From: Pseudomonas sp. IAC-BECa141
GTDB taxonomy: Bacteria > Pseudomonadota > Gammaproteobacteria > Pseudomonadales > Pseudomonadaceae
Reading direction: 5' to 3'
NCBI RefSeq assembly: GCF_020544405.1
Contig: NZ_CP065410.1
Location: 3,286,001 to 3,350,000 of the forward strand
DNA: 64,000 nt
The notes under the pieces are model-generated. The model was not told where the DNA came from, made no database searches, and saw nothing but the letters and a program-made list of their open reading frames with translations. The first letter of the stretch is position 1. Each line of letters opens with the position of its first letter. Position numbers and translations under genes: made by a program. Of this stretch, positions 11,850 to 31,976 are shown piece after piece.

Positions 11850-11860
11850 CTCGTGCCTCC

Positions 11861-14354: not shown

Positions 14355-14392
14355 AGGCGTCCGCTTTTGGCCGAAAGCAGACGGCCAAATAG
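14355..14392. repeat. Dispersed GGCC-type repeat at the prophage left edge
   Basis: This contains the clearest version of the core, GTCCGCTTTTGGCCGAAAGC, followed by AGACGGCC. It lies between the LysR gene and the last preserved phage gene and may mark where the left part of the prophage was lost. Confidence 0.7.
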
Positions 14393-14437
14393 CCAGCTTC
14401 TTGGCGCCGTTGTCACGGGACAGGTCCACAGATACTT

Positions 14438-15368: not shown

Positions 15369-15701
15369 TCATGCCTTCGGCTCGGCCTCGCTCAGGTCCA
15401 GCCGCTTGGCCACCCAGCGTTCGTACAAGCTGATGGCGACGTCCGCGCCGGCCATCGCGGTCAGGCAACGTAGGGCGCCCGCTGTCCAGATCGGCAAGCC
15501 CGCACCGACCAGCAACATCATCGCTGACACGCCGCAGACGATGCAGGCGCCGGACCGAAGTGCGAGGCGGCGCAGTAAGGCCCAGCCTCGTGCCCCATCC
15601 TTGTCAGCGCGCCACATCTCGCCGGACACGCCGCCAACCAATGACAGGGCAATCACCAACCAGATCGGCATCTCTGCCAGTGCCTGTTGCTCGTTCGTCA
15701 T
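15369..15701 (-). CDS. Phage holin family protein
   Basis: A 110-residue membrane protein starting MTNEQQALAEMPIWLVIALS. It has hydrophobic segments at ~12-30, ~48-72 (GACIVCGVSAMMLLVGAGLP) and ~78-95, with a charged C-terminal tail (KRLDLSEAEPKA). Size, topology and position directly before the packaging genes fit a class I-type holin that would permeabilise the inner membrane at lysis. AGGGG and CAGGG precede the ATG. No endolysin gene follows, so the lysis cassette is incomplete. Confidence 0.75.
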   Translation of the reverse strand: MTNEQQALAEMPIWLVIALSLVGGVSGEMWRADKDGARGWALLRRLALRSGACIVCGVSAMMLLVGAGLPIWTAGALRCLTAMAGADVAISLYERWVAKRLDLSEAEPKA

Positions 15702-15715
15702 TACCCTGCCCCTTA

Positions 15716-15742
15716 AACAAAAAGACCCGGCGCTATGGCCGG
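15716..15742 (-). terminator. Rho-independent terminator between Q-like gene and holin
   Basis: On the reverse strand GACCCGGC and GCCGGGTC form a stem around a six-base loop, followed by TTTTTGTTT. It would stop leftward transcripts just before the holin, the position where an antiterminator must act to let late genes be read. Confidence 0.8.
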
Positions 15743-16238
15743 GTCGGGTGGTGGGTGGCCTGCCGCGCTTTGCGGTCGCACCCATCGAAGATGGCCCCTT
15801 TTTACAGCTCGATTCTGGTGGCAGCAAGGCCGTTTTAATGCCATCCGGTGAATGTGTGGGTGACGCCCGGTGAACGGCTGGCGAATGTCGGTGAATATCT
15901 CAACACGGCTGGCTTTTGCTTCTGTTGTTTTAGCGGCGTCCCATACGTCCCACTTCTCTAAAACAAGGTGGGACGTCGGAAAGCCCCACAGATTGGGGGC
16001 GTTGCCCCACCGTCCTACTTTTCTTTCTCTTTTCTCGTGTATAGAGAGAAATTTAAAAAGCACGCGTGCGCGTGAACGCGCGTACCTGTGCCCGCTACGC
16101 ATACACGGGTGGGAGGTAAAAAAGGTGGGACGGTGGGACAGCCCAACAACGACAAGGCCTGCGCCCGTCCCATTGCTGCAAAAGCAGTAGGACGGACGCA
16201 GGCCGGTGGGACGGCGTAAGCCAGAGGGATGCCCACGA
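15743..16238. other. Non-coding phage region with GTGGGACG motifs
   Basis: Nearly 500 bases without a credible gene. The motif GTGGGACG or its complement recurs (15946-15953, 15968-15975, and near 16124-16140 and 16205-16213), the first two as an inverted pair. An AT-rich block lies at 16015-16060. This is the expected location of a late promoter and antitermination site for a Q-type protein encoded immediately upstream; that role is inference. Confidence 0.45.
16156..16204 (-). terminator. Large hairpin after the Q-like gene
   Basis: Perfect 8-bp outer arms (GGCCTGCG/CGCAGGCC), an inner CGTCC/GGACG pairing and GCTGC/GCAGT around an AAAA loop make a 49-base hairpin 34 bases beyond the Q-like stop. 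On the reverse strand it is followed by TTGTCGTTGTT, so it may terminate or pause leftward transcription. Confidence 0.5.
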
Positions 16239-16598
16239 TCAAGCCGCTTCCCCCAGGAGGAAGTGCTCGACCACGATGTGGGCGTCATGCAGGCGTTGGT
16301 AGTAGACGTTGCGTGTGCAGCCACTGCGCGTCAGACGTGCCGCCAAGGGCGCGTCAGGCTGGAAGTAATGCACCTGCACCACGGTCATCAACTCGGGGTC
16401 GAGGCGTTTCTTGACGATGCGCTCAATGTCCAAAGACGCCTCGAGCGGCACCCTGCTCCCGCGCCTACCGCGCACCAGTTGGCCACCGCTCTCCATCATC
16501 ATGGCTACCATGTTGCCGCCCGAGTAACCGGCAGCCACCTCGTCGCTGTGCAGCTCCTGCGCCCATTGCTTGAGGGCCATGTCGATCGCTTTAATCAT
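16239..16598 (-). CDS. Phage antitermination Q-like protein
   Basis: A 119-residue protein starting MIKAIDMALKQWAQELHSDE. The C-terminal half contains a helix-turn-helix-like stretch (APLAARLTRSGCTRNVYYQRLHDAHI) typical of the small Q-type antiterminators and related sigma-like phage proteins. It sits where Q is expected, between replication and lysis genes, and is followed by long non-coding DNA and terminators. The start overlaps the end of the VapE-like gene by 8 bases. The exact mode of action cannot be read from sequence. Confidence 0.55.
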   Translation of the reverse strand: MIKAIDMALKQWAQELHSDEVAAGYSGGNMVAMMMESGGQLVRGRRGSRVPLEASLDIERIVKKRLDPELMTVVQVHYFQPDAPLAARLTRSGCTRNVYYQRLHDAHIVVEHFLLGEAA

Positions 16599-18810
16599 CG
16601 AAGCACGGCTCCTCGAACTCAGGTTGCTCCAGCGCAGGCGCCCTGCCCCAATGCTCGGGCTTCTTGTACGCCCAGGGCCGCTGACCACTCTTGTTCAACG
16701 CGCCGAGACGGAAGCGTCGCCAGCCGAGCCGGTGCAGGATCGCGCCGACGCGCATCTGCTCCGGTTTGCCCCAATGACCGGGATCGAGCTTGAGCGCCTG
16801 ATTCATCACCTCGCTGCCGGTGGTGGTCTCGCCGATCTGCGACTCTTCGAGCCAAGTCAGGATCGGTGTTTCCCATTCGTCCACCACGAAGCGTTCGTCC
16901 TGCTCCTCGCTGAACATCGGCGCCTCCTCACGGGTCACCCACCAGAGGTCGCCGGCCTCGAAGCAGAACACCGCTTCGGCCCACAGTTGGTCGCGGATCT
17001 CGCGCAGCAACGGCACGTCAACCTTGGTACAGGCCACCGGCCAATACCGACGGTTGCCGGTGGCGTCCTTGAGGTATTCGTCCTGGTTGGTGGTACCTAC
17101 GAAGACACACTGGCGTGGCACGTCCAGGGTTCTGCGGCCGTAGCTCTCACGGTAGGTGTCGGTCGACGCCGAGAAGAACTGCTTGGCCTTGGTGCTCTCG
17201 GCCTTGTTGAAGCTGTCCAGCTCGCCGAGTTCGACGATCCACTTGCCGCGAATCGCCTGGAAGCCGTCCTTGTCACCGAGGGCAAACGGCGTATCCATGA
17301 ACCACTCACCGCCGAGCACGCTCATGGCGGTCGACTTACCGGCGCCCTGTACGCCTTCGAGGATCATCACCGAGTCCGCCTTGCAGCCGGGTTTCATCAC
17401 CCGTGCCACGGCCGAGATCAGCCAGCGCTTGCCGACCTTGGAGGTGTAGTCGGTTTCCTTGACCCCCATCACATCGGTCAGCCAACGCTCCAGGCGCGGC
17501 ACACGATCCCATTCGAGCTTTTTCAGGTACTCGCGCACCGGGTGAAAGGCGTGGTCGTGCGCAACGACACTGACCGCCTCGATCACGTGCGAGGACTTCA
17601 CGCGCAGGTTGTACTGCTGCGCGAGCCACTTCATCACTCGCACGTCATCAATGTCGGCCCACTCGCCGATGCCACCGCCATAGGGCGCTGCACGCAACTT
17701 GACGATCTTCGAGCTGAAGGCGCAGTAGCTGATCACCCCGGCCCAGCGTTCGTCGTGAGCGAGGATCAATTCGACGTTCTGCATGTGCGCGATCAAGGCG
17801 CCGCTTTCACTGCGGGCCAGCTGATCTTTCCAGCCACCGGCAGCCGGTGGGCGGACCACCGCAAGCACTTGTCGGCGAACTGCGTCGAGGCCTTCGGCGA
17901 CGTGCAGGTCGTTGAAATCGGTCCACTTCTCGTGGCGCTCGACCGCGAAGATCGGCGCAACGACCTGGGCACCAACGATCAGCGCGGCGTTGCTGGCCTT
18001 CTCTTCGCCGGGGTTCCAGGCATCGCCATTGGGCTTGGTGGTTTTCCAGTCGTCATCGCGGCAGATGATCAGCGGGCAGCCGGCAAAGCGTTCACGCATG
18101 ACCTTGCACACGGCCAGCAGGTTGCCCGCATCGAAGGCCACTGCCACCGCGAGCGACGTCGCCATGTGCAGGCTGGCGCCGGTGGCGTAACCCTCACAGA
18201 CCAGCACCGGTTCGCCCGGTACCGGATGCGGGCCGAGCAGGTGAAAGGTGCCCTCCTTCGCCATCCCGTAAGGCCAGTAGGACTTGTCGCGGCCGGTGTC
18301 TTCCTGCTTGTTCGGAAAGATCACTTGCAGGCCCATGATCTGATCACGGGCGTTCTTCATTGGGACCAATACGGCGCCGGTGCGTGGCGCGTAGCGGACG
18401 TTGATGCCGACGATCTGTTTGCGGTCCAGGTAATCGCTGCGCCCGGTGGTCGGCATGCGCTCGAACAAACCTTGCGCCCTTTTCGCGGCCCGCCGCGCAG
18501 CGTTATTCGCGATTTCCGCGGCTCGGCGCTTGGCTTCTTCCTGGCGAGCGCGCATCACTTCGCGTTCTTCCAGCGACATGCGGCCGGCCTTGACCTTGAT
18601 CTTCTGCGTCTCACCCGAACGCCAGTCACCGAAGGCGCCGAAGATCAGCGTGTCGCCCTTCTCCGTGCGCTGCTCGTGGACCACGTACCAGCCGTTCTTT
18701 TCCTTGCCCTTGTCCTGCGAAGTCTTGCAGCGGGTCAGCTTGCCGAACACCAGCGGTTGCGCCGGCTCCAGACCGTAATCGGCGAATTGCCCCAACACTT
18801 CATCGAGCAT
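16591..18810 (-). CDS. Phage primase-helicase: TOPRIM plus VapE/VirE ATPase
   Basis: A 739-residue replication protein from MLDEVLGQFADYG. The N-terminal part carries a TOPRIM-type primase domain (VLVCEGYATGAS near residue 200 and the acidic CRDDDW near 250). The C-terminal half is a VapE/VirE-type superfamily 3-like helicase with Walker A GVQGAGKST near 490, Walker B IVELGELDSF and a sensor GTTNQDEYL. It probably primes and unwinds phage DNA, replacing lambda O/P. The start overlaps the DksA-like gene by 11 bases. A long antisense frame exists across it but encodes nothing recognisable. Confidence 0.85.
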   Translation of the reverse strand: MLDEVLGQFADYGLEPAQPLVFGKLTRCKTSQDKGKEKNGWYVVHEQRTEKGDTLIFGAFGDWRSGETQKIKVKAGRMSLEEREVMRARQEEAKRRAAEIANNAARRAAKRAQGLFERMPTTGRSDYLDRKQIVGINVRYAPRTGAVLVPMKNARDQIMGLQVIFPNKQEDTGRDKSYWPYGMAKEGTFHLLGPHPVPGEPVLVCEGYATGASLHMATSLAVAVAFDAGNLLAVCKVMRERFAGCPLIICRDDDWKTTKPNGDAWNPGEEKASNAALIVGAQVVAPIFAVERHEKWTDFNDLHVAEGLDAVRRQVLAVVRPPAAGGWKDQLARSESGALIAHMQNVELILAHDERWAGVISYCAFSSKIVKLRAAPYGGGIGEWADIDDVRVMKWLAQQYNLRVKSSHVIEAVSVVAHDHAFHPVREYLKKLEWDRVPRLERWLTDVMGVKETDYTSKVGKRWLISAVARVMKPGCKADSVMILEGVQGAGKSTAMSVLGGEWFMDTPFALGDKDGFQAIRGKWIVELGELDSFNKAESTKAKQFFSASTDTYRESYGRRTLDVPRQCVFVGTTNQDEYLKDATGNRRYWPVACTKVDVPLLREIRDQLWAEAVFCFEAGDLWWVTREEAPMFSEEQDERFVVDEWETPILTWLEESQIGETTTGSEVMNQALKLDPGHWGKPEQMRVGAILHRLGWRRFRLGALNKSGQRPWAYKKPEHWGRAPALEQPEFEEPCFDD

Positions 18811-19024
18811 GCTGAATCCCCCGCTCAGAGAGGGACTGGCAGCTGATGCACTGCGAGCAACCCGGCTGGGCCAGGCGGCGGGCTTCCGGGATTGGATCGT
18901 CACAGGCTTCGCAGAACAGCAAGGAATGCGCAGCGCTTTCGGCCTTGGCAGCGCTGCGCGCGGCCATGGCCTGATCGATGCGTTCCTGCACCAGATCGTT
19001 GGCGAAATCGGCGATGTCAGCCAC
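18800..19024 (-). CDS. TraR/DksA-like zinc-finger phage protein
   Basis: A 74-residue protein starting at GTG 19024 (VADIADFANDLVQERIDQA), with GAGGTG six bases upstream. The C-terminal part has a four-cysteine finger (FCEACDDPIPEAR...GCSQCISC), as in phage TraR/DksA proteins that bind the RNA polymerase secondary channel. It overlaps its neighbours on both sides, as expected inside the leftward early operon. Confidence 0.75.
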   Translation of the reverse strand: MADIADFANDLVQERIDQAMAARSAAKAESAAHSLLFCEACDDPIPEARRLAQPGCSQCISCQSLSERGIQHAR

Positions 19025-19535
19025 GGTCGGCACCTCGCGTGGTCTGGTTGACGTAGGTGGCGCGGTTGAACAAACCCAGCAGACCTTGAATACCTCGGAA
19101 CACCTGCAGACGAATCGCCGCCAATTCCTGATCAGTCACTACACCGTCGCCAATGCTCTTGGCCCAGGTCTCGGCGAGATCCGCGACCTGACGAAAGTAC
19201 TCGGCGATACCGGTCGTGAGGGTTTCAGGCATGTCATAGGTGTAGGTGTCGGCCAACTCCTGCCAGATCGTGTCACCGACCAGCGCATGCACCGCATCGA
19301 GAATGCGGCGGTCCTTGGTCAGTTCGAGGATCTCGCCGAATTCCTGAATGTTGATGGAGTGGCTCGGATGGGTTGGCGACAACTTATGCTGCAGCGTGGT
19401 CGGGTTACGACCGGTCGTGGCTGCGATGGCAGCAGCGCCGCCCGGGTAATCGCGAGCGGCGTGGTACAGCGCTAAATCGAGCGGCAGGATTTCCCGCTGC
19501 GCCCGTTCCAGAGAACTGAGAGCGATTCGGCTCAT
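19017..19535 (-). CDS. Phage regulatory protein CII-like (CP76 type)
   Basis: A 172-residue protein from MSRIALSSLERAQREILPLD. Its N-terminal helix-turn-helix includes YPGGAAAIAATTGRNPTTLQHKLSP, a pattern of the Phage_CP76/CII family found immediately after cro in many pseudomonad prophages. The C-terminal part is helical. In this family it activates lysogeny or early functions, and its exact role here is not known. It lies downstream of cro in the leftward operon after a 318-base non-coding gap, and its 3' end overlaps the DksA-like gene. Confidence 0.75.
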   Translation of the reverse strand: MSRIALSSLERAQREILPLDLALYHAARDYPGGAAAIAATTGRNPTTLQHKLSPTHPSHSINIQEFGEILELTKDRRILDAVHALVGDTIWQELADTYTYDMPETLTTGIAEYFRQVADLAETWAKSIGDGVVTDQELAAIRLQVFRGIQGLLGLFNRATYVNQTTRGADRG

Positions 19536-19619
19536 GGCATTAATCCTAAAAGTTGCCAGTGCCGCGCGACAGAAGTTGGTGATACATTTGCCGCGTGGTC
19601 TGGAGAGGCCCAAAGCCGG

Positions 19620-19853
19620 CTAGGTTCGTAAGACCAACACCGGCACCGTGCCGGGGCGAACAATCCGTTGTTCCCCCTGGCGCAACAGCTGCCCGCTCTG
19701 TGGTAAGAACGGCAGCAACACCAAGGCTTCCGAGCCTTGGAAACGCGATGAAGGTTGGCAGCATGTGGTGTGCTCGCCTTCCAACATCGCGACCCGACCG
19801 CATTGTGGTGATGCTATCGGGAGAAACTGGGCGACCCTTGGGTCGCCTTTTTT
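19620..19853 (+). ncRNA. Candidate structured RNA between cro and cII, opposite strand
   Basis: Between the leftward cro and cII genes the plus strand shows several strong hairpins: near 19649-19685 (GGGGCGAACAA paired with TTGTTCCCCC), 19721-19740 (CCAAGGCT TCCG AGCCTTGG), and an intrinsic terminator at 19830-19853 (GGCGACCC TT GGGTCGCC then TTTTTT). The T-tract is only on the plus strand, so a plus-strand transcript ends here. I could not find a convincing promoter. A small Cys-containing frame (19648 onward) runs through the terminator and is probably not real. Confidence 0.4.
19830..19853 (+). terminator. Rho-independent terminator (plus strand)
   Basis: An eight-base-pair stem GGCGACCC/GGGTCGCC with a TT loop, followed by TTTTTTCT, placed just before the 3' end of the leftward cro-like gene. 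The orientation serves a rightward transcript, not the cro operon. Confidence 0.8.
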
Positions 19854-20078
19854 CTATGCAACTTGGAAGCTTTCCTTTTCCGGAGGAAACACATCATCAA
19901 GACTGCATGGCGTGCCTAGCTTATTGAGCGCTCTGACTATGGCTCTGCACTCCGCCAGTCCAGCAATTCGGCGCCCAGCCTCATAGTTGCTAATACGTGC
20001 TTGGGTCCATCCAAGAGCTACAACGAGCTCCTTTTGCTTAATGCCAGACTTTTCTCGATGCTCGGCGATTAGATTCAT
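19854..20078 (-). CDS. Cro-like helix-turn-helix protein
   Basis: A 74-residue protein from MNLIAEHREKSGIKQKELVV. The helix-turn-helix spans about residues 11-40 (KQKELVVALGWTQARISNYE). GGAGGACAGC before the ATG sets the start over an ATG four codons upstream. It is divergent from the S24 repressor, with a shared operator in between, which is the normal place of cro in lambdoid phages. It should repress the lysogenic promoter. Confidence 0.8.
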   Translation of the reverse strand: MNLIAEHREKSGIKQKELVVALGWTQARISNYEAGRRIAGLAECRAIVRALNKLGTPCSLDDVFPPEKESFQVA

Positions 20079-20127
20079 GCTGTCCTCCAATTGGCTGCGG
20101 CCATCTTAATCACGAATTGCAGATATT

Positions 20128-20144
20128 TCAACACGTAAAGTGAT
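20128..20144. promoter_or_regulatory. Repressor operator in the cro/repressor gap
   Basis: The reverse strand reads ATCACTTTACGTGTTGA, nearly the same as the site at 20928-20944 (ATCACATAATGTGTTGA). It lies between the divergent cro and repressor genes. A weaker half-match (ATCACGAATTG) is at 20109-20119. Confidence 0.6.
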
Positions 20145-20178
20145 TATAAATAATTTCAGTGCGTGGTAAAAAAAGCAC

Positions 20179-20928
20179 ATGAACACACTAGGCTCACGTA
20201 TCAAGCAGTATCGAAAAGCCAAAGGTATGAGCCAACAGGCTCTTGCTTACGCCTGCGGATGGGAATCACAGTCTCGAATAGGTAACTATGAGAAAGGGGC
20301 TCGACAGCCAAATCTCCACGACCTAAAAAAAATCGCGGAGGCACTGGGGGTATCTTTTCCAGACCTTGTAGCTGGGAAAGATCGATCCGACATTGAATCG
20401 TACCCAGATGTAATACAAGGCCGGATTCGATCCGAAGACGGACTTGTTGCGGCATACGGCAGATCCAGAGATAAAGACCAGCCGGTTAGCAGCCTCGTCG
20501 GCTGGGCAAAGGATGGCAAGGTACCTGTCCTATCAAATGCGCAAGTGAGCAGTGAAGGTTTCTTCGAAGCAGTTGAGCCTCCACCTGGCCAAGGCGAAGG
20601 ATTTCTTAACATACATAGTGATGATCCGGATGCTTACGGCTTAAGAGTTCTTGGCGATAGTTTGATGCCCCGAATCAAAAACGGTGAGTTCGTTCTTATA
20701 GAGCCGAACAAGCGTTTCTACAGTGGGGACGAGGTCATAGTACGAACCTCCTCCGGCAAAGCTATGATTAAAGAATTCATCTATCTCCGTGACGGAATGT
20801 ACCGACTCGATAGCGTCAATACCGATCACGAGACTCTCCACATTGCGGAAAATGAAGTGGAAGAAATCCATCTAGTAGGTGGAATCCTCAAATCCTCCCG
20901 CTTTTTATACAGTGCCGCGACCTATTAA
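20179..20928 (+). CDS. Phage repressor, XRE helix-turn-helix plus S24 peptidase
   Basis: A 249-residue CI/LexA-like repressor. The DNA-binding domain is at residues 5-65 (GSRIKQYRKAKGMSQQALAYACG, SRIGNYEKGARQP). The C-terminal S24 domain has the catalytic Ser in LRVLGDSLMPRIKNGEF (about residue 161) and Lys in GKAMIKEFIY (about 199). It should keep the prophage silent and undergo RecA-stimulated self-cleavage after DNA damage. Matching operators lie on both sides of the gene, so it probably controls cro and the rightward early operon. Lower GC than core genes suits a phage origin. Confidence 0.9.
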   Translation: MNTLGSRIKQYRKAKGMSQQALAYACGWESQSRIGNYEKGARQPNLHDLKKIAEALGVSFPDLVAGKDRSDIESYPDVIQGRIRSEDGLVAAYGRSRDKDQPVSSLVGWAKDGKVPVLSNAQVSSEGFFEAVEPPPGQGEGFLNIHSDDPDAYGLRVLGDSLMPRIKNGEFVLIEPNKRFYSGDEVIVRTSSGKAMIKEFIYLRDGMYRLDSVNTDHETLHIAENEVEEIHLVGGILKSSRFLYSAATY

Positions 20929-20969
20929 TCACATAATGTGTTGACACGATCAAGCACAATACGTGATAT
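20928..20969 (+). promoter_or_regulatory. Rightward early promoter with overlapping operators
   Basis: A sigma-70 promoter, TTGACA (20941-20946), 17 bases, TGATAT (20964-20969), starts the operon at 21006. One operator copy (20928-20944, ATCACATAATGTGTTGA) covers the -35 box. A second, inverted copy (20949-20967, ATCACGTATTGTGCTTGAT on the reverse strand) covers the spacer and -10 box. This is a textbook repressed phage promoter. Confidence 0.7.
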
Positions 20970-21005
20970 TTGCCTCACTCATTACCACAGAGCGAGGCAA
21001 TACCT

Positions 21006-21185
21006 ATGCGCACCACAGCATCCCTGCATATCCATCCTGCATGCGTCAGCAATCGCAAACTGATCGAACAGCTGCAGCTCGCCACGGGCTGCTTGGTCGT
21101 CATTCATAACAGCAAACCCAAGCTTGTCGCTGAGCCCTGTCAGCCCTCTCCTGTCGATCCGAACGGCGGAGGGCACGCGGCATGA
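21006..21185 (+). CDS. Small phage early protein (59 aa)
   Basis: A 59-residue protein starting MRTTASLHIHPACVSNRKLI, with GAGG before the ATG at 21006. It contains a hydrophobic VVIHN stretch and ends in a Pro/Gly-rich tail. The stop overlaps the next ATG. It is the first gene after the repressed early promoter. Function unknown. Confidence 0.65.
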   Translation: MRTTASLHIHPACVSNRKLIEQLQLATGCLVVIHNSKPKLVAEPCQPSPVDPNGGGHAA

Positions 21186-21772
21186 TCAAGTACAAGATCG
21201 ACAACCGCACCCTGCAGTTGCTCAATGCACAGGTCAACCTGACCGAGACCTTCAAACACGTCCTGCGCACAGCGCCGAAGCGCGAGTGCCTGGCATTCCG
21301 TCTCAAGGCCGAACGCGGCCCCGTGGAAAGCACTTTTGTCATCGAGCTGGGCAGTGAACGCCACACGCTGACCCTGCCGAACGACAAGAAGATGCACCTC
21401 AAGCTGGCCGACTTCATCGAGGAGATTGCCAACGGCCCGCTTGATCCGAGCAGCACCAGCGACCTGGTGCATCGCGCACATGCCGATCGCCAGTACGGAT
21501 GCTTCGACGTCCAGGACAAGCAGCGGGTATTCGAGCTGATTCGTACCGGCGGCGTGCTGAGCCTCGACATGGGCTTCGATCTGCCGCTGCACGTGGTTGT
21601 TCATCGCCCGCACACTCTCTCCTGCATCACCGCCATCCTCAGCATCGGCAAGAAGAGTCCGCGCACCCGGTGTTTTACCGCGTGTGGTACCGATGTCGAA
21701 ATCTACGGCAAGGTCAGCGAATCCATCAGCCAAATTGCTGCAGCGGCCACTCCTGCCGCACACGCGGTTTAA
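21182..21772 (+). CDS. Phage protein of unknown function (196 aa)
   Basis: A 196-residue soluble protein starting MIKYKIDNRTLQLLNAQVNL. It alternates beta-like and helical segments, has two cysteines in the middle of the chain (YGCFDV, LSCITA) and an Ala-rich C-terminus. It overlaps its upstream neighbour by four bases and precedes the KilA-C-like gene by ten, so it belongs to the early operon. I do not recognise a functional domain. Confidence 0.7.
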   Translation: MIKYKIDNRTLQLLNAQVNLTETFKHVLRTAPKRECLAFRLKAERGPVESTFVIELGSERHTLTLPNDKKMHLKLADFIEEIANGPLDPSSTSDLVHRAHADRQYGCFDVQDKQRVFELIRTGGVLSLDMGFDLPLHVVVHRPHTLSCITAILSIGKKSPRTRCFTACGTDVEIYGKVSESISQIAAAATPAAHAV

Positions 21773-21782
21773 GGAGGGCGCC

Positions 21783-22064
21783 ATGGAACGCACCCTCGCC
21801 CAAGCGGCCGCTCATCTCGGCCTGACCCGTCCTAAGCTCATCGCCCGCATGCGCGAAAAGGGCCTACTCAAGGGAAACCTGCCGGCGGACCTTGAGCGCG
21901 ACAACGATTATCTACGGATCAAGGACAGCCCCTGGTACGACGAGAAATACGGCATGCAGTACAGCCAGTCGACGCGGGTCAAGCAGGACGGCATCCGCTG
22001 GCTGGCCGAGCAGTTGAACATTCATCTTCCCGCCATCCCGGCAGACCGCCGTGACGTGGCCTAG
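21783..22064 (+). CDS. KilA-C/antirepressor C-terminal-domain-like protein
   Basis: A 93-residue protein from MERTLAQAAAHLGLTRPKLI. The arrangement AAAHLGLTRPKLIARMREKGLL...KYGMQYSQSTRVKQDGIRWLAEQ matches the C-terminal DNA-binding (ANT/KilAC) domain of phage antirepressors, here without the N-terminal Bro/Ant domain. AAGGAGG precedes the ATG at 21783. A longer in-frame extension would overlap the previous gene fully and is rejected. Confidence 0.75.
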   Translation: MERTLAQAAAHLGLTRPKLIARMREKGLLKGNLPADLERDNDYLRIKDSPWYDEKYGMQYSQSTRVKQDGIRWLAEQLNIHLPAIPADRRDVA

Positions 22065-22230
22065 GGAGTACGCCCGCCAGATCGTTGCCATGCGCACACG
22101 CGAGGAGCGCAACGCCGCGCTCCTCGAAGTGCCCGAACATCTGCGCGGGCTGACCAGACGCCACTGCCTGAACGCTTGGAACCACCCGGCACGACAACAA
22201 CGTAAGGAGGCTCGACAAGACCATGAGTAA
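22051..22230 (+). CDS. Small phage protein (59 aa) starting with GTG
   Basis: A 59-residue frame starting at GTG 22051 reads VTWPREYARQIVAMRTREER and continues NAALLEVPEHLRGLTRRHCLNAW to TAA at 22228. The pattern 'REYA-I-A---REER--AL--VPEHLR' is one I associate with small conserved proteins in pseudomonad phages. It overlaps the KilAC-like gene by 14 bases and the PrtN-like gene by 8, so translational coupling is likely. Function unknown. Confidence 0.6.
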   Translation: MTWPREYARQIVAMRTREERNAALLEVPEHLRGLTRRHCLNAWNHPARQQRKEARQDHE

Positions 22231-22603
22231 CGCTACGCAGAATCCGCTTCGCCTTCATCCGGCGCCTGAATCGACCACTGTTGAAATGCTCTATCGCACT
22301 TTCGGAAATGTGCTGATCCCGCTGGAAAAAATTCGGGAGGCCTATTTTCGCAACCTGAATTCACAGTTGTTCGTGACTGAGATCTACAACGGCCGGATTC
22401 AGCTTCCGATCACCACGATCGACGCCAGCCGCAAGGCACTCAAATACGTGCACATACGACACATGGCCTCATTGATCGACATCTGCGCCTACAAAGCCGA
22501 TGAGGACATGCAGCGACAGCACGACGGCCAACGCCCTGTTGCCCCCACACCACTGACGGCTGTCACCACCGGCCAGCGACAATCCCAGGAGCACACCACA
22601 TGA
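22223..22603 (+). CDS. Pyocin activator PrtN-like protein
   Basis: A 126-residue protein. The central part (TVEMLYRTFGNVLIPLEKIR, AYFRNLNSQLFVTEIYNGRI, LPITTIDASRKALKYVHIRH) has the layout of PrtN, the transcriptional activator of pyocin genes in P. aeruginosa, including the 'YF-----L' and 'G-I-LP' positions. The C-terminal tail is Gln/Thr/Pro-rich and probably unstructured. AAGGAGG precedes the ATG. In pyocin loci PrtN is repressed by an S24-type repressor, which this prophage also has. Confidence 0.75.
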   Translation: MSNATQNPLRLHPAPESTTVEMLYRTFGNVLIPLEKIREAYFRNLNSQLFVTEIYNGRIQLPITTIDASRKALKYVHIRHMASLIDICAYKADEDMQRQHDGQRPVAPTPLTAVTTGQRQSQEHTT

Positions 22604-23067
22604 TGACCCCAATACAAATCGGTGCACTCGTCACCCTGATAGTTCTGGCCGCCCTGCTGCTCTGGGGCGGTTACATCATGGGCCGCAGCGATGGCCTGGA
22701 AACAGGCCTGCGCGAGGGTGAAGACATCCAGCGCGCCGCAAGCGCCAAAACCATCCGCGAGCTTCAGGCCTCCCTGCAGTTCATCCGGGCCGATCACGCG
22801 CGCCTGGCACACACCTGCAAACGAATTGAAGCAGGTCTACTCTTCGGCCCGGCCGAGCACCAGACGCTGATCGATATCGGAGAGCTGCTGCGGGTCGCCG
22901 CCGAGACCTTCAGCGCCTTTCGTACGGGCAAGAAGCTTGAGCGTGATGCCCGGTCCCAGCGCGAACAGGTGCTTGCGATGGCTGCGCAGCTGCAACCAAG
23001 AGTTGATGGCAGCAAGGTCGGACAACCACTCTCCAGCACTGCGCAAGTCACTGTGGAGGCTGCGTGA
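22600..23067 (+). CDS. Membrane-anchored coiled-coil phage protein
   Basis: A 155-residue protein with one N-terminal membrane segment (IGALVTLIVLAALLLWGGYIMG, residues ~7-28), followed by long helical segments rich in Arg, Glu and Gln likely to form a coiled coil (TIRELQASLQFIRADHARLA). Two adjacent ATGs at 22600 and 22603 could serve as start. The stop TGA at 23065-23067 abuts ATG 23068 and overlaps GTG 23064. Function unknown; an early operon member. Confidence 0.65.
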   Translation: MMTPIQIGALVTLIVLAALLLWGGYIMGRSDGLETGLREGEDIQRAASAKTIRELQASLQFIRADHARLAHTCKRIEAGLLFGPAEHQTLIDIGELLRVAAETFSAFRTGKKLERDARSQREQVLAMAAQLQPRVDGSKVGQPLSSTAQVTVEAA

Positions 23068-23816
23068 ATGAGTTGGCTCTTTTCGCAGGCGCTGGTGGCG
23101 GAATACTCGGCGGCCACCTCCTCGGCTGGCGAACCGTCTGCGCCGTTGAGCGTGATGCCTTCGCCGCACAGATTCTGGCGCAACGACAAACCGATGGACT
23201 GCTCCCGCCTTTCCCGATTTGGTCTGACGTGTGCAGTTTTGACGGACGCCCATGGCGAGGCCTTGTTGACGTGGTTTCGGGAGGATTTCCTTGTCAGGAC
23301 ATCTCGGTTGCAGGCGCCGGCCTGGGTATCGCCGGCGCCCGCTCCGGACTGTGGCGGCAGATGGCACGAATTACCGATGAGGTACGACCGCGCTACGTCG
23401 AACTGGAGAACTCACCATTGCTTGTGGGAAGAGGACTTGCCTTGGTGCTCGGTGACCTTGCCGAAATGGGGTATGACGCGCGATGGGGTGTTATCGGAGC
23501 GGCTGACCTCGGCGCCCCTCATCAGCGTGACCGGATCTGGCTCATCGCAGAAGACACGCGTCAGACGGTGGCCAACACCCGTGGCGAGCATGGCAAAGGG
23601 ATCCTCCCCGGCCGCATTGACTCGCCGTTCCGGGGCCGACCGCTCGAACGATCGCCTGGATCACGCCGTGATGGCACTGGATGGTGGTCATCTGAGCCCG
23701 GAATGGGCCGAGTGGCTGATGGGGTGGCCCATCGGGTGGACCGACTTAAGGCCATTGGCAACGGACAGGTTCCAGTCGTGGCAGCAAGCGCATTCGAAGC
23801 GCTCTGTATTTCCTAG
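23064..23816 (+). CDS. Phage C5-cytosine DNA methyltransferase
   Basis: A 250-residue methyltransferase starting at GTG 23064, overlapping the upstream stop. The motifs appear in order: motif I LFAGAGGGILGG, motif II VERDAFAAQ, catalytic motif IV GGFPCQDIS (Cys about residue 77), motif VI ELENSP, motif VIII GAPHQRDRIWLIA, and motif X LKAIGNGQVPVVAAS at the end. The target-recognition region is very short (about residues 165-215). It probably protects phage DNA from host restriction. The whole gene is overlapped in the +1 frame by another long reading frame. Confidence 0.85.
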   Translation: MNELALFAGAGGGILGGHLLGWRTVCAVERDAFAAQILAQRQTDGLLPPFPIWSDVCSFDGRPWRGLVDVVSGGFPCQDISVAGAGLGIAGARSGLWRQMARITDEVRPRYVELENSPLLVGRGLALVLGDLAEMGYDARWGVIGAADLGAPHQRDRIWLIAEDTRQTVANTRGEHGKGILPGRIDSPFRGRPLERSPGSRRDGTGWWSSEPGMGRVADGVAHRVDRLKAIGNGQVPVVAASAFEALCIS

Positions 23817-23832
23817 CAAGGAGGCAGCATGA
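23068..23832 (+). CDS. Second long reading frame fully overlapping the methyltransferase
   Basis: Starting at ATG 23068, directly after the upstream stop, a 254-residue frame (MSWLFSQALVAEYSAATSSA) covers the entire methyltransferase. Segments such as HRFWRNDKPMDCSRLSRFGLT, SNWRTHHCLWEED, RRWPTPVASMAKGS and LSPEWAEWLMGWPIGWTDLR match a protein family I recall from phages next to cytosine methyltransferases. By eye, third codon positions are more often G or C in this frame than in the methyltransferase frame. Either both frames are used or one is a relic; I cannot decide by reading. Confidence 0.5.
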   Translation: MSWLFSQALVAEYSAATSSAGEPSAPLSVMPSPHRFWRNDKPMDCSRLSRFGLTCAVLTDAHGEALLTWFREDFLVRTSRLQAPAWVSPAPAPDCGGRWHELPMRYDRATSNWRTHHCLWEEDLPWCSVTLPKWGMTRDGVLSERLTSAPLISVTGSGSSQKTRVRRWPTPVASMAKGSSPAALTRRSGADRSNDRLDHAVMALDGGHLSPEWAEWLMGWPIGWTDLRPLATDRFQSWQQAHSKRSVFPSKEAA

Positions 23833-24035
23833 ACATTCAATTTCTTAGCCATGAGCAGGTTTGCGAGCTAACCGGAGCTAAAACTAAAGCCGGTCAGATA
23901 ACGGTACTGAAGCGCAATGGCATTCGTCATACCATCAAGCGCAATGGCTGGCCTTGCGTGATTGCGTCCGCGCTGACAGGAGCAACTACCAACGCGACAG
24001 AAACTCCAACGTGGCAGCCGCGCCTGGTGGGATAA
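23829..24035 (+). CDS. DUF4224 protein, excisionase-like
   Basis: A 68-residue protein, MNIQFLSHEQVCELTGAKTK, with a short DNA-binding pattern (LSHEQVCELTGAKTKAGQITVLKRNGI) of DUF4224, small proteins nearly always next to phage integrases and probably acting as recombination directionality factors. AAGGAGG precedes the ATG. Its stop codon directly abuts the integrase ATG. Confidence 0.8.
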   Translation: MNIQFLSHEQVCELTGAKTKAGQITVLKRNGIRHTIKRNGWPCVIASALTGATTNATETPTWQPRLVG

Positions 24036-25067
24036 ATGGGACGAAGACCAACAAAGCCGGGGAGCATTCCTCGGCTGCGCGAGAGAAAACGCGGCAACAC
24101 CACCTATTACCTCTATGACACTGGCGGGAAACCACGCAAGGAAATCCCGCTAGGTACAGATTACGGCCTAGCCATACTAGAGTACGCAAAACTCGAAAAA
24201 AGCCGCGTCTCTCAAGCTCTGACACAAACCGTACTTACCTTTGCTTACGTAGCCGAGCTTTATATGAATGAGGTGGTTCCCACAAAAGCCCACGCCACCC
24301 AAAAGGACAACGCGCGCGAACTGAAAAACCTTCTTCTGTTCTTCAACGACCCGCCCGCTCCTCTAGAAGCTATCGAACCAAAACATGTCAGCCAGTACCT
24401 TCGTCATCGTGGCAAGACAGCACCTATTCGCGCGAATCGGGAGAAGGCACTACTCAGCTCCATCTGGAACTTTGCTCGCGAGAATGGCTATACATCCTTG
24501 GCAAATCCTTGCTCAGGCGTGAAAGGCAATAAAGAAACCGGTCGCGACATATATGTTGAAGACGACATACTTGCCCGAGCCTACCGGCATGCCGATCAGC
24601 CATTGAGGGACGCTTTGGACCTGTTCTACCTAACGGGCCAGAGGATCGCAGACACATTGAAGATGGATGAGCGAGACATAAAAGACGGAAAGCTCTCCGT
24701 TCAGCAAGGCAAGACCGGGGCTAAACGAAGGATCGAGATCATTGGTGAGCTCAAAGTCGTAATCGATCGAATCATGACACGAAAGGCTGGACACAAAATC
24801 AGATCAACACGTCTGGTAGTAATCGACTCTGGGCAGCCAATGACGACCAGCATGCTCAGAAAGCGGTTTGATGACGCCAGGGAAGCAGCCGGAATTCCAA
24901 AAGCAGAATTCCAGATGCGCGACCTAAGAGCAAAAGCGGCGACGGATAAGGAGGAGTCAACAGGGAGCATCCGAGAAGCTAGGGACCAGCTAGGACATAC
25001 AACCGTTGGGATGACAGAACAGTACATCCGAATGCGCAAGGGGATGAAGGTTACCCCTACGAAGTGA
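24036..25067 (+). CDS. int: Tyrosine-family phage integrase
   Basis: A 343-residue site-specific recombinase. The N-terminal arm- and core-binding region is followed by the catalytic domain from about 185: first Arg in FYLTGQRIADTL (~202), Lys in QQGKTGAK, second Arg in MRDLRAKAATD (with Asp where His is usual), His in LGHTTVGMTEQY (~319) and the Tyr nucleophile at ~329. It ends 94 bases from the 3' end of tRNA-Leu, the likely attachment gene. Codon use is AT-richer than in core genes. Confidence 0.9.
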   Translation: MGRRPTKPGSIPRLRERKRGNTTYYLYDTGGKPRKEIPLGTDYGLAILEYAKLEKSRVSQALTQTVLTFAYVAELYMNEVVPTKAHATQKDNARELKNLLLFFNDPPAPLEAIEPKHVSQYLRHRGKTAPIRANREKALLSSIWNFARENGYTSLANPCSGVKGNKETGRDIYVEDDILARAYRHADQPLRDALDLFYLTGQRIADTLKMDERDIKDGKLSVQQGKTGAKRRIEIIGELKVVIDRIMTRKAGHKIRSTRLVVIDSGQPMTTSMLRKRFDDAREAAGIPKAEFQMRDLRAKAATDKEESTGSIREARDQLGHTTVGMTEQYIRMRKGMKVTPTK

Positions 25068-25078
25068 CTGACGGTCAC

Positions 25079-25114
25079 GAATTGCGGAAAAGATTTTTTG
25101 ATTGCGGAAAAAAG
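25079..25114. repeat. Direct repeat near the attachment end
   Basis: ATTGCGGAAAA occurs at 25081-25091 and again at 25101-25111, between integrase and tRNA-Leu. The spacing of 20 bases suggests arm-type integrase or excisionase binding sites. I found no second copy near the left end of the prophage. Confidence 0.4.
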
Positions 25115-25118
25115 AATT

Positions 25119-25152
25119 AAGGGCTTGCATGAGGTATGTCATGCAAGCCCTT
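25119..25152 (-). terminator. Terminator of tRNA-Leu
   Basis: A perfect 14-bp stem (AAGGGCTTGCATGA and complement) with a six-base loop, followed on the reverse strand by AATTCTTTTTT. It lies nine bases beyond the CCA end of tRNA-Leu. Confidence 0.9.
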
Positions 25153-25160
25153 GATATTCG

Positions 25161-25247
25161 TGGTGCCCGAAGCCGGAATCGAACCGGCACGCCCTTACGA
25201 GCGGGGGATTTTAAGTCCCATGCGTCTACCAGTTTCGCCATTCGGGC
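25161..25247 (-). tRNA. tRNA-Leu (anticodon TAA)
   Basis: The reverse strand gives an 87-base tRNA starting GCCCGAATGGCGAAACTGGT, with anticodon loop ACTTAAAAT (TAA), a long class II variable arm, TGCCGGTTCGATTCCGGC and an encoded CCA. Its 3' end faces the phage integrase, so it is the probable attB gene, restored by integration. Confidence 0.95.
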
Positions 25248-25403
25248 GGTAGCGCGGTGTTGCTTTATTCTGATGACGATTCACAGTCCTGACAGGAACT
25301 GTGCATCGGTGACAGAGGGGGAAATATATACATCACTTCCCGGTGAAGCAAGTTTGCAGTTGTCGTTTCAAAGACTAAATCTTTCAGTGCAACGCAAATA
25401 AAA

Positions 25404-25699: not shown

Positions 25700-26260
25700 T
25701 TATTTCTTTTCAACATCGGTCTTCAGATGTGGCCAGGCAGCTCGAAGGTATTGAACCATCGACCACAAGGTCAGACCTGCCGAGACCATCAGCAACGCAT
25801 AACCGATGAAAACCCAGAAACTGAAATCCTTGGGGTTTGCCAGGAGGATCACCAGTGCGAGCATCTGCGCAGCAGTTTTCCACTTGCCCAGATTCGATAC
25901 GGCTACATGGGCCCGGGCACCGAGTTCGGCCATCCACTCACGCAGCGCCGAGACAACGATCTCGCGACCGATGATGACAGCGGCCGGTAAAGTGAGCCAT
26001 AGGTTGCCATGTTCTTGCACCAGCAACACCAAGGCAACAGCAACCATCAGTTTGTCAGCGACAGGATCCAGAAACGCACCAAACGGCGTGCTTTGCTCCA
26101 GGCGTCGCGCGAGATAGCCGTCGAGCCAATCCGTTGCCGCCGCGAAAGCGAATACCGAACTTGAGGCCAGATAGCTCCATTGGTAAGGCAGGTAGAACAA
26201 CAGAATGAAGATCGGGATGAGCAGGACGCGGAGAACGGTAATCAGATTAGGGATATTCAT
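25700..26260 (-). CDS. pgsA: CDP-diacylglycerol-glycerol-3-phosphate 3-phosphatidyltransferase
   Basis: A 186-residue inner-membrane enzyme that makes phosphatidylglycerol phosphate, the committed step to phosphatidylglycerol and cardiolipin. The CDP-alcohol phosphotransferase motif D-x2-DG-x2-AR-x8-G-x3-D-x3-D is visible as [20 protein letters not shown] followed by AFLDPVADK. About five membrane helices. The start at [11 protein letters not shown] (26260) is preferred to an ATG two codons earlier. It follows the gacA-uvrC frame by 32 bases and is probably co-transcribed, then followed by the tRNAs. Confidence 0.95.
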
Positions 26261-26292
26261 CGGCACAACTGGCTACGAGGTGAATGGGCATT

Positions 26293-28395
26293 CTACTCAC
26301 TATGCAGGTTTGCATAAATCGACTCTGCTAGCTTTTTGCTGATCCCCGGTGCTTTGGCGATCTCTTCGATGCTTGCACGAGACAGCTCCTGCAATCCACC
26401 AAAATGTTTCAACAAGTCCCGACGCCGGGTCGGCCCGACGCCCGCAACGCCTTCCAGCGTGGAGGTGCGGCGGGTCTTGCCGCGCCGTGCACGGTGGCCA
26501 GTGATTGCAAAGCGGTGGGCTTCGTCACGGATCTGCTGAATCAGATGCAGTGCCGGCGAATCACCCCGCAAGGTGAACTCGTTTGCAGCATCATTCAGAT
26601 ACAAAGTCTCGAATCCCGCCTTGCGTGTTGCACCCTTTGCGACCCCCAGCAAGATCAAATCCGGAACAGCCAGTTCGTTGAGCACATCACGCGCCATCGA
26701 CAGCTGTCCCTTGCCGCCGTCCACCAGCAGGATGTCCGGCAACTTGCCCTCGCCTTCCTTCAGCTTGCTGAAGCGTCGGGTCAGAGCCTGATGCATGGCG
26801 GCGTAATCGTCGCCTGCGGTCACGCCTTCGATGTTGTAGCGGCGGTAATCGGACTTGATCGCCCCTTCCGGGCCAAATACCACGCAGGAGGCCACCGTCG
26901 CTTCACCGCTGGAGTGGCTGATGTCGTAGCACTCAAGCCGTTGCGGCGGCTCATCGAGATTCAACACTTCTGCCAGCGCTTCGAAACGTGCGGCAACGTG
27001 TTGACGGTTTGCCAGCCTGGCGCCGAGTGCCTGTTCGGCATTGGTCACGGCCAGTTGCTGCCAGCGCGCCCGCGTGCCGCGAACCCGATGACTGATGCTC
27101 AACTCACGCCCGCGCAACGCCTGAATGGCCTCGATCAGCGCAGGAAAATCTTCGTGCACGACGTTGACGATCAACTCGCTCGGCAAGTCGCGTTCCGGGC
27201 TGCTGATGAAGTATTGCCCGAGGAACGCGGCCATGACCTCTGCCACATCCTCTTCGATCCCGACCTGGGGGAAGAAATTCTTGCTGCCAAGTACCCGCCC
27301 TCCCCGCACGCTGATCAGGTGGACGCAGGCACCGCCCGGGTTGACGAACGCGGCGATCACATCGATATCGCCCGTGCCGCCCTCCATGCTCTGCTGATCT
27401 TGCACCCGACGCAGCAAGGCGATCTGGTCGCGCAGTTCGGCGGCGCGTTCGAACTCGAGGTTGATTGCAGCCTCTTCCATCGCCGTCGACAGCTCATTGG
27501 TCAACGCATGGCTGCGTCCTTCGAGAAACATCACCGAGTGACGCACATCCTCGGCGTAAACCTCAGGCTCGACCAAGCCGACACAGGGCGCCTTGCAACG
27601 CTTGATCTGGTATTGCAGGCATGGCCGGGTCCGGTTCTTGTAATAACTGTCCTCGCACTGACGCACGAAGAACGTCTTCTGCAACAGGCTGAGGCTCTCG
27701 CGAATCGCCCCGGCGCTCGGATAAGGGCCGAAATATTTGCCCTTGGCCTTCTTGGCCCCGCGATGAATGCTCATGCCGTGTCGAACCGCCAACAGCGTCA
27801 GTTCGACATCGCTGCTGATCGAGAGCTTCTCGAAAATGCGGTAGCGGTAAGTGTTCACGGTTTTCGGCGACAAACACAATTTGTCGGAAATGATCTGAAC
27901 CTTCTGACAACCGACAATCATCAGCGCAATCTGGATTTCCCGTTCCGACAACGCGTCGAACGGTGAATCATTGGTCGGCTGAAAGGATTTGATCGCCAAT
28001 TGCTGGGCAATCTGAGGGCTGATATAGCGCTGCCCGGCAAACACCAGGCGAATGGCCTGAACCATTTCCGGCAATCCGGCGCCCTTGGTCAGATACCCCG
28101 CCGCACCGGCCTGCAACAACCGCGTAGGAAACGGATCTTCCTCACAAACGGTGACCGCGACCACTTTGATGTCGGGATGACTTCGCAACAGTTTGCGTGT
28201 GGCTTCGAGACCGCCGATGCCCGGCATCTTGACGTCCATCAGCACCACGTCAGGCTTCAACTCACGGGCCTTGATGAGGGATTCTTCCCCGGACTCGGCC
28301 TGGCCTACCACCTGCAAGCCATCGATATCGGCCAGCATTCGTGTAATGCCTGTACGAACGAGATCATGGTCGTCGACCACTAGCACCCTAATCAA
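26293..28395 (-). CDS. gacA-uvrC: GacA response regulator fused in frame to UvrC lacking its GIY-YIG domain
   Basis: One uninterrupted 700-residue frame. Residues 1-208 are GacA: REC domain with phospho-acceptor Asp54 in [10 protein letters not shown], Lys in GYLTKGAGL, and the LuxR-type helix-turn-helix ([30 protein letters not shown]), using the TTG start and GAGGTG known for gacA. At RHGM (ATG 27772-27774) the frame passes straight into UvrC at [20 protein letters not shown]. UvrC's UVR helix pair, RNase H-like nuclease ([25 protein letters not shown]) and terminal HhH motifs ([16 protein letters not shown]) are present. The last ~5 GacA residues, the intergenic DNA and ~115 UvrC residues (the 3'-incision GIY-YIG nuclease) are missing. 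Normally these are two genes. Confidence 0.9.
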
Positions 28396-30682: not shown

Positions 30683-31106
30683 CAATCAAGCCGCCCTCCG
30701 GTGTGTGATTCCCCCGGAGGGCGAGCCCATGTTCAACATCGACGTGTCCTCCCTGGATGCGCGGGATTCGTCCTGTTCTTTCGCTGCGCCCTTCTCTGGA
30801 AATCAAGACCTGCTCGCGAGAGCCTGCATTTAACGCGCTTGATTGATCACCCGATGTCAGCCCGACACCCGGCGAGACAGGGTGAACTGCACTGAAGCAA
30901 GTAGGCAAAAATTGGAAAAGCGCGCTCGACAAGCCGGGAACCCTCCAAATATTCAGAACCGGATCTCATTCAAAAGTGAAAATTCATACGAACTCTGATC
31001 CAGTTTCCACCGCACTAGAAAGAGTATTCAGGCATCGCCTGCGCAACGACTGTTTTAGAGTGACACGCAGACAACATCGATGAATCTCTGCGATCAAGGA
31101 CGAAAA
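30683..31106. other. Intergenic region after the DAHP synthase
   Basis: It holds a perfect 10-bp hairpin at 30692-30723 (CGCCCTCCGG/CCGGAGGGCG) without a T-tract, perhaps an mRNA-protecting end. Short frames in 30618-30932 have no convincing signals. The AT-richer end (30900-31080) probably contains the lipase promoter. Confidence 0.5.
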
Positions 31107-31976
31107 ATGCAACGAAACGCCACAACTCTCTATCCCGTACTGTTGGTGCATGGTCTGTTCGGATTCGAGCGCATTGGCTCTTTCGAACTGTTCCATGACG
31201 TCAAACAGGCACTCAAGGCCGCTGGCGTTCAGGTATTTGTGCCGCACTTATCGGCCGTTCATGACAACGAAGTGCGAGGCGAGCAATTGCTCTCGCAGAT
31301 CGACGCTGTGCTCCGAGGTACTGGCGCGACAAAAGTCAACCTGATCGGTCACAGCCAGGGCGCGTTGTCTGCTCGATACGCTGCAGCGCTTGCGCCACAC
31401 AAGGTCGCTTCCGTGACCTCGGTCAGCGGGCCCAACCACGGTTCGGAGCTGGCCGACTTGCTGCGCCAGGCACTGATCCCCGGACGTCTGCCGGAGACCG
31501 TGGCGCAGAATGTTGCGACGTTGTTTTCCGACTTTCTTTCTTTGCTCAGCGGACACAAAAAACTGCCTCACCATGCACTGGCAGCACTCAATGCACTGAC
31601 GACAGAAGGAGTCGGCCAATTCAATGACAAATACCCGCAGGGCCTTCCCGAAACCTGGGGTGGCCAGGGCGCCGAGCGAGTCGATGGCGTTCACTATTAT
31701 TCGTGGAGTGGCGTTGTGCCGAAGCTGACCTTGCAGACCCTCGACCCGGTGCAGGGCATCTGCCTGGCCCTGTCGGAATATTTCATTACAGAGCCCGCGC
31801 AGAACGACGGATTCGTCGGGCGTTTCAGCTCCCACCTCGGCACCGTGATCGGTTCCGATTATCCGCTCGACCATCTGCGCAGCCTGCGTCGGGGCATCGG
31901 CCAGGGCAACACGGAGAGTGACCCGATCCAACTCTATGTCGAACACGCCTTGCGCCTGCAAGCGGCTAATCTATAG
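31107..31976 (+). CDS. Triacylglycerol lipase-like alpha/beta hydrolase
   Basis: A 289-residue hydrolase with LYPVLLVHGLFGFERIG (oxyanion HG), the nucleophile elbow LIGHSQGALSARYAA, the acid-residue region AQNDGFVGRFSSHLG and His in DYPLDHLR. The order and spacing match Pseudomonas/Burkholderia family I lipases. No signal peptide follows the Met at 31107, which is preferred to an ATG nine codons upstream because AAGGA lies just before it. So it is either cytoplasmic or secreted without a cleaved signal. No lipase chaperone gene is adjacent. Confidence 0.85.
   Translation: MQRNATTLYPVLLVHGLFGFERIGSFELFHDVKQALKAAGVQVFVPHLSAVHDNEVRGEQLLSQIDAVLRGTGATKVNLIGHSQGALSARYAAALAPHKVASVTSVSGPNHGSELADLLRQALIPGRLPETVAQNVATLFSDFLSLLSGHKKLPHHALAALNALTTEGVGQFNDKYPQGLPETWGGQGAERVDGVHYYSWSGVVPKLTLQTLDPVQGICLALSEYFITEPAQNDGFVGRFSSHLGTVIGSDYPLDHLRSLRRGIGQGNTESDPIQLYVEHALRLQAANL

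What the first reader, a model, noticed from the sequence alone, without database searches (positions are those of the whole stretch)
26293..28395. In-frame fusion of the global regulator GacA to a UvrC that has lost its GIY-YIG nuclease
Seen directly: one open frame runs from the TTG start of gacA through its helix-turn-helix to RHGM (codon at 27772-27774), then straight into UvrC at [12 protein letters not shown]. Established: pseudomonads normally have separate gacA (213 aa) and uvrC (~607 aa), and UvrC's N-terminal GIY-YIG domain makes the 3' incision. Inference: one deletion removed the last ~5 GacA residues, the intergenic DNA and ~115 UvrC residues. It could yield a GacA tethered to a DNA-binding repair protein, disturbed Gac/Rsm signalling and loss of nucleotide excision repair. 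Spontaneous gac mutants are common in culture, so this may be a selected allele; an assembly error is the main alternative.
Basis: partly seen in the sequence, partly recalled or inferred. Interest (0 to 1): 0.9.

Follow-up and report, generated by a model that had tools for sequence, protein, structure and literature searches.

The report
Deletion-born GacA–UvrC fusion lacking GIY-YIG nuclease
In one Pseudomonas genome an apparently recent 365-base deletion joined a master regulator gene in frame to a DNA-repair gene that lost its first cutting domain, so a single mutation probably cripples DNA repair and may also upset the regulator.

Summary
One frame (26293-28395, minus strand, 700 aa) encodes GacA residues 1-208 joined to UvrC residues 116-607. 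Relatives have separate genes: gacA (213 aa), a 2-nt gap, then uvrC (607 aa). Against four relatives the window lacks exactly 365 bp: 5 GacA codons, the stop, the gap and 115 UvrC codons. Perfect junction homology is 2 bp (TG).

The UvrC N-terminus is found in 384 of 385 good-quality Pseudomonas genomes searched; the one miss is this genome. Of 121 other loci with both genes, none lacks this DNA. A search of 5.8 billion proteins returned three other long GacA-UvrC proteins; all keep GIY-YIG.

The rest of the frame is pristine (GacA 0-1, UvrC 1-2 amino-acid changes against 21-28 and 88-95 silent ones, two nearest relatives), so the deletion is recent, under strong constraint, or not real. GacS, UvrA, UvrB, RsmY and RsmZ are full-length; no second UvrC was found. 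In about 34 kb compared it is the only clear gene-breaking difference.

Most likely this is a spontaneous lesion abolishing nucleotide excision repair and weakening GacA. Without reads an assembly error cannot be excluded, and GacA activity is untested.

The parts
26293..28395 (-). gacA-uvrC fusion frame, 700 aa, TTG start
28048..28386 (-). GacA receiver domain (residues 4-116), with D8, D9, D54 and K104 in place
   Evidence: Pfam Response_reg; residues read; D54 as phospho-acceptor: PMC8262913 passage names Asp49 or Asp54
27787..27954 (-). GacA LuxR-type helix-turn-helix (residues 148-203)
   Evidence: Pfam GerE
27769..27774 (-). fusion junction: GacA codon 208 (ATG) followed by UvrC codon 116 (AGC); 365 bp missing against relatives
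26296..27771 (-). UvrC residues 116-607 (C-terminal 492 residues)
   Evidence: TIGR00194 matched over profile positions 108-574; comparison with L040
27583..27657 (-). four-cysteine stretch of UvrC (C247, C259, C267, C271 of the fusion), the likely Fe-S loop
   Evidence: invariant in the 19 rows; present; an Fe-S loop downstream of GIY-YIG is mentioned in PMC9426483 (passage). That these four cysteines are that loop is recalled, not tested
27406..27501 (-). UVR motif (UvrB-binding)
   Evidence: Pfam UVR
26503..27369 (-). RNase H-like 5'-incision region (two Pfam segments, residues 343-459 and 476-631)
26308..26460 (-). helix-hairpin-helix DNA-binding domain
25700..26266 (-). pgsA-like gene (CDP-alcohol phosphatidyltransferase), downstream neighbour as in the gacA-uvrC-pgsA operon of P. 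syringae
   Evidence: operon described in PMC6786584 (section read)

Best explanation
A recent spontaneous deletion of 365 bp, most likely by illegitimate recombination or slippage because only 2 bp of homology are present, removed the last five GacA codons, the stop, the 2-nt spacer, the uvrC start and the whole UvrC GIY-YIG domain, and by a one-in-three chance left the frame open. The cell would now make one 700-residue protein from the gacA promoter. Shown: sequence, domain content, no second UvrC found, full-length partners. Inferred: (1) without GIY-YIG the 3' incision cannot be made, so UvrABC excision is lost, although the remnant may still bind UvrB and DNA and perhaps nick; (2) a 492-residue DNA-binding protein attached directly to the end of the GacA helix-turn-helix lowers or abolishes GacA function by hindering dimerisation, DNA binding or stability. 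It is best read as a double loss-of-function or reduced-function allele of one isolate, not as an evolved new protein.
For: Exact 365-bp difference to four relatives. The UvrC N-terminal 115 residues are found in 392 of 398 Pseudomonas genomes; the six misses are this genome (99.99% complete) and five genomes only 73-78% complete; among genomes at least 90% complete and at most 5% contaminated 384 of 385. In one search, 58 of 58 other genomes show two separate pieces. In one search, 123 loci had both genes: 2 are this genome (0 bp between the codons), the other 121 (some are the same genome twice) have 361-424 bp. The rest of the frame shows no decay: against the two nearest loci (94% DNA identity) GacA has 0 and 1 amino-acid changes with 21 and 28 silent ones, UvrC 1 and 2 with 95 and 88; no residue is unique against 105 rows. 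The only other GIY-YIG match in the genome is in a 112-aa open frame. UvrA, UvrB, GacS (917 aa from a GTG), RsmY, RsmZ and a photolyase domain are present and full-length against their models. UvrC's N-terminal domain makes the 3' cut (PMC7835731, passages); mutated catalytic residues in H. pylori UvrC gave a strong UV defect (PMC9426483, passages). gacA mutations are readily selected: six in three of five evolving P. protegens lines (PMC8262913, passages).
Against: No read data, expression or phenotype. The GacA receiver and helix-turn-helix are complete, so GacA may still work. The purity of the frame also fits a fusion that is under selection, or an assembly error. No same-species genome without the deletion was compared; the nearest fetched loci are at about 94%, and only the best few of the 398 genomes were fetched.
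Confidence: 0.7

Rival explanations
1. Assembly or consensus error: the culture carries normal gacA and uvrC and the 365 bp were dropped in assembly.
For: The rest of both genes is pristine, and the same junction was seen in no other genome or protein. The window's own 700-aa protein did not appear among the 120 listed hits or the 3.
Against: One 6.22-Mb contig, 99.99% complete. No repeat at the junction that would make an assembler collapse it (2 bp). Over 33.0 and 34.1 kb aligned to two relatives, 28 small indels were seen: 16 lie in no frame of 80 aa or more, 8 in frames of 80-119 aa that may not be genes, 3 cancel in frame inside one gene, 1 lies in the upstream part of a 462-aa frame, ahead of its likely start.
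Confidence: 0.13
2. Working GacA half: the fusion still receives phosphate from GacS and activates rsmY/rsmZ at near-normal level, while the UvrC half is useless. The allele is then an excision-repair mutant with near-normal Gac signalling. (This agrees with the best explanation on the repair half, so the odds overlap.)
For: Complete receiver and helix-turn-helix, over the NCBIfam GacA cut-off (309.5 against 280); only the five C-terminal residues are lost; GacA part has 0-1 changes against the two nearest loci.
Against: 492 residues attached at the end of the DNA-binding domain with no linker; a P. protegens gacA allele changed at residue 183 showed a decline of biocontrol traits (PMC8262913, passages; that residue 183 lies in the helix-turn-helix follows).
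Confidence: 0.3
3. Evolved, selected regulator-nuclease fusion that couples Gac signalling to DNA repair or brings UvrB to GacA sites.
For: Frame kept open; UVR, RNase H-like and helix-hairpin-helix parts complete; strong conservation.
Against: Found in one genome only; the three other GacA-UvrC proteins found are single sequences and keep GIY-YIG; the conservation is explained as well by a recent origin.
Confidence: 0.05
4. Laboratory-made deletion.
For: Clean codon-to-codon join.
Against: The endpoints make no obvious design sense and I saw no scar or marker in the stretch read.
Confidence: 0.02

Closest known systems
Separate gacA and uvrC of Pseudomonas (gacA-uvrC-pgsA operon)
   Same: Same locus, order and reading direction; GacA 1-208 and UvrC 116-607 nearly identical in sequence.
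   Different: 365 bp including the gacA stop, the uvrC start and GIY-YIG are missing; one protein instead of two.
Sporadic GacA-UvrC proteins P0001 (830 aa), P0002 (730 aa, named UvrC of Pseudomonas aeruginosa), P0121 (654 aa)
   Same: GacA-type sequence followed by UvrC in one frame.
   Different: All three keep GIY-YIG. P0001 has garbled sequence at the GacA end that looks like a frameshift; P0002 starts inside GacA; P0121 ends inside the RNase H-like region.
Spontaneous gacA/gacS mutants of pseudomonads
   Same: A lesion in gacA that may change secondary metabolism and root-colonisation traits.
   Different: The gacA changes in the passages read (PMC8262913) are point changes; a gacS deletion in P. 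aeruginosa CHA is known from a title (PMC4004566, listing only). Here the same lesion also removes the UvrC 3' nuclease. No gacA-uvrC fusion was met in the listings.
Tn5::gacA mutant AC811 of P. syringae DC3000 (PMC6786584; abstract and one section)
   Same: One gacA lesion affecting both GacA and UvrC.
   Different: A transposon insertion that lowers the uvrC transcript, made in the laboratory; no fusion.

Membership tests
GacA/UvrY/SirA response regulator | Receiver domain with phospho-acceptor aspartate | tested here: met
   Response_reg 4-116, E 4.2e-26; D54 present
GacA/UvrY/SirA response regulator | LuxR-type helix-turn-helix | tested here: met
   GerE 148-203; NF007018 309.5 bits, cut-off 280
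GacA/UvrY/SirA response regulator | Free-standing protein of about 213 aa ending shortly after the helix-turn-helix | tested here: not met
   Runs on into UvrC
GacA/UvrY/SirA response regulator | Activates rsmY/rsmZ on GacS phosphorylation | not testable with these tools
   Partners present; activity unknown
UvrC excinuclease subunit | N-terminal GIY-YIG (3' incision) | tested here: not met
   Absent from the frame; the 115 N-terminal residues give no match in this genome
UvrC excinuclease subunit | UVR motif, RNase H-like domain, helix-hairpin-helix | tested here: met
   TIGR00194 448.6 bits, cut-off 285.45, but NF001824 367.4 under its cut-off 451
UvrC excinuclease subunit | Dual incision with UvrAB | not testable with these tools
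   Needs biochemistry or UV survival
Cho-type second UvrC nuclease (possible backup) | UvrC-like GIY-YIG protein elsewhere in the genome | tested here: not met
   The only GIY-YIG match is in a 112-aa open frame at G000:C1:1128772; the UvrC N-terminus as query gave no match in this genome

The most novel reading that the evidence does not exclude
The fusion is made and active in both halves: a GacS-controlled DNA-binding regulator that carries a UvrB-binding, possibly nicking UvrC remnant to GacA-regulated promoters, changing both Gac output and where UvrB acts, and kept by selection.
Probability: 0.06. Interest if true: 0.75.

Novelty: new variant of a known kind. Interest (0 to 1): 0.4.

Why it matters
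gacA lesions are common in pseudomonads, but this one mutation hits the regulator and the repair nuclease beside it. If confirmed, the strain is a natural test of what GacA tolerates at its C-terminus and of what a UvrC without its 3' nuclease does in a cell with no backup enzyme found. It also warns that traits of this isolate (secondary metabolism, UV sensitivity, mutation rate) may not represent its species.

Tried and rejected
Short direct repeat as the cause of the deletion: rejected; only TG is shared (2 bp; 15% of random breakpoints in L140 share 2 or more). The 5-bp overlap of the BLAST pieces is a match of 4 in 5.

Old pseudogene: rejected; no decay in either half. In that count 105 of the 121 other loci were used; 16 were dropped because of an alignment gap or because the locus ended early.

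Second UvrC or Cho as backup: not found.

The whole-protein search scored only 7999 candidates and listed 120. One search measured the spacing of the two genes; it did not test the other loci for fusions by loss of a stop.

Alignment A1 put the UvrC rows on the wrong part and was not used; A2 aligned UvrC N-termini over GacA and was used only for the cysteines of the UvrC part.

Solved structures: separate relatives of each half, no fusion; nothing further was drawn from it.

Link with the mobile-element genes to the left: no evidence; they end 2.7 kb from the junction, and no direct repeats of 20 bp or more were found in 6000-25300.

Full report
What is there. The minus-strand frame 26293-28395 starts with TTG and runs 700 codons. 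It begins as GacA (receiver, then LuxR-type helix-turn-helix) and goes over, at residue 208/209, into UvrC, with UVR motif, RNase H-like region and helix-hairpin-helix but no GIY-YIG domain. NCBIfam scores it over the cut-off both for the GacA family (NF007018, 309.5 bits, residues 1-208) and for UvrC TIGR00194 (448.6 bits, from profile position 108), but under the cut-off of another UvrC model, NF001824 (367.4 against 451).

The deletion. In the named relative Pseudomonas paraglycinae BML-PP023 (L040) gacA codes for 213 aa, its stop is followed by two bases, and uvrC starts with ATG and codes for 607 aa. At the breakpoint, L140, L139, L137 and L141 each hold 365 bp that the window lacks; L137 is the same DNA as L040. 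This is 5 GacA codons, the stop, 2 bp and 115 UvrC codons (18 + 2 + 345). Because gacA and uvrC lie in different frames, a loss of 365 bp (two more than a multiple of three) is what puts them in one frame. Homology at the ends is TG only; of 20000 random breakpoints 365 bp apart in L140, 15% share two or more bases.

How unusual. In 58 of 58 other Pseudomonas genomes the window sequence matches as two pieces that break at the junction. With the first 115 residues of UvrC as query, 392 of 398 Pseudomonas genomes gave a match; the six without are this genome and five of 73-78% completeness, so that among genomes at least 90% complete and at most 5% contaminated the count is 384 of 385. One genome (G129) had a clearly weaker match (3e-29). 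In one search, 123 loci had both genes; two are this genome, and the other 121 (some from the same genomes) have 361-424 bp between the two codons. In a search of 5.8 billion proteins, 66 candidates were scored with GacA residues 100-208 and three long proteins matched. All three are GacA-UvrC and keep GIY-YIG; they look like single read-through or frameshift products. The window's own protein was not among the hits listed.

How old. The nearest loci fetched, L140 and L139, are at 94.4 and 94.3% DNA identity in the shared coding part, so probably other species; nearer genomes may exist among those not fetched. Against L140 the GacA part has 21 silent and 0 amino-acid changes, the UvrC part 95 and 1; against L139 28 and 1, 88 and 2. 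No residue of the fusion is unique against 105 rows; one (N605) is rare, 3 of 105. The ratio is as low as between relatives with separate genes, so the deletion is recent, or the sequence is under strong constraint, or the deletion is not real.

Is it real. The genome is one contig of 6,221,060 bases, 99.99% complete. Over 33.0 and 34.1 kb aligned to G359 and G259, 16 and 12 small indels were seen. Of these 28, 16 lie in no frame of 80 aa or more, 8 in frames of 80-119 aa that may not be genes, 3 (31726-31743) cancel inside a 298-aa frame, and 1 (29362) lies in the upstream part of a 462-aa frame, ahead of what I take for its start. Besides the junction there are three breaks between aligned blocks: 30755-30776 against G359, which touches only a 119-aa frame, and 48058-48176 and 51157-51206 against G259, which touch the last codons of a 338-aa frame and a 559-aa frame that runs antisense to other frames. 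So the junction is the only clear gene-breaking difference. There is no repeat to mislead an assembler. I could not see reads.

What it does. UvrC cuts 3' of the lesion with its N-terminal GIY-YIG domain and 5' with the C-terminal RNase H-like domain (PMC7835731, passages). [quoted passage not shown] the passage does not make clear whether each domain was tested alone). No second UvrC or Cho was found; the only other GIY-YIG match is in a 112-aa frame. UvrA and UvrB match their models over full length without stops, so lesions would be recognised but not excised. A photolyase domain is present, so UV damage might be repaired in light. These are inferences from sequence.

GacA. The kinase GacS (917 aa from a GTG), RsmY and RsmZ are present. 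The GacA half lacks only its last five residues but now ends in a large DNA-binding protein without a linker. I think reduced function is more likely than full function, without proof. In P. savastanoi a uvrC promoter lies inside gacA, 193 bp before the uvrC start (PMC10875052, passages); if the same holds here it is kept, and ATG codon 208 could in principle start a UvrC 116-607 product, though by eye I see no clear ribosome site. gacA mutations are often selected: six in three of five P. protegens root-colonising lines (PMC8262913, passages). A gacA insertion in P. syringae acted in part through uvrC (PMC6786584, abstract and one section). I met no report of a gacA-uvrC fusion in the listings of four searches.

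Verdict. A genuine-looking and apparently recent deletion allele, seen in this genome alone, that probably disables nucleotide excision repair and may weaken GacA. It is a striking mutation, not a new system.

Noticed in passing
window ~16591-25067: Mobile-element genes left of the tRNA cluster: tyrosine integrase (24036-25067), C-5 cytosine methylase (23064-23816), VapE/Toprim protein (16591-18903); the tRNA-Leu at 25161-25247 is next to the integrase. The stretch left of about 25080 gave no aligned block over 800 bp in the fetched parts of G359 and G259. No direct repeat of 20 bp or more was found in 6000-25300.
   Followed up: partly
G034:C1:3650317, G138:C1:1457006, G204:C1:1998720: Among the rows listed (the list was cut), the UvrC N-terminus lies in short open frames (266, 309, 507 aa) in three other Pseudomonas genomes, so uvrC may be broken there too.
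   Followed up: no
P0001, P0002, P0121: Three single-sequence GacA-UvrC proteins that keep GIY-YIG; the short gap between the genes seems to allow fusions by small changes.
   Followed up: partly
G000:C1:3408198-3410738: A second UvrA-like frame of 986 aa beside the main UvrA.
   Followed up: no
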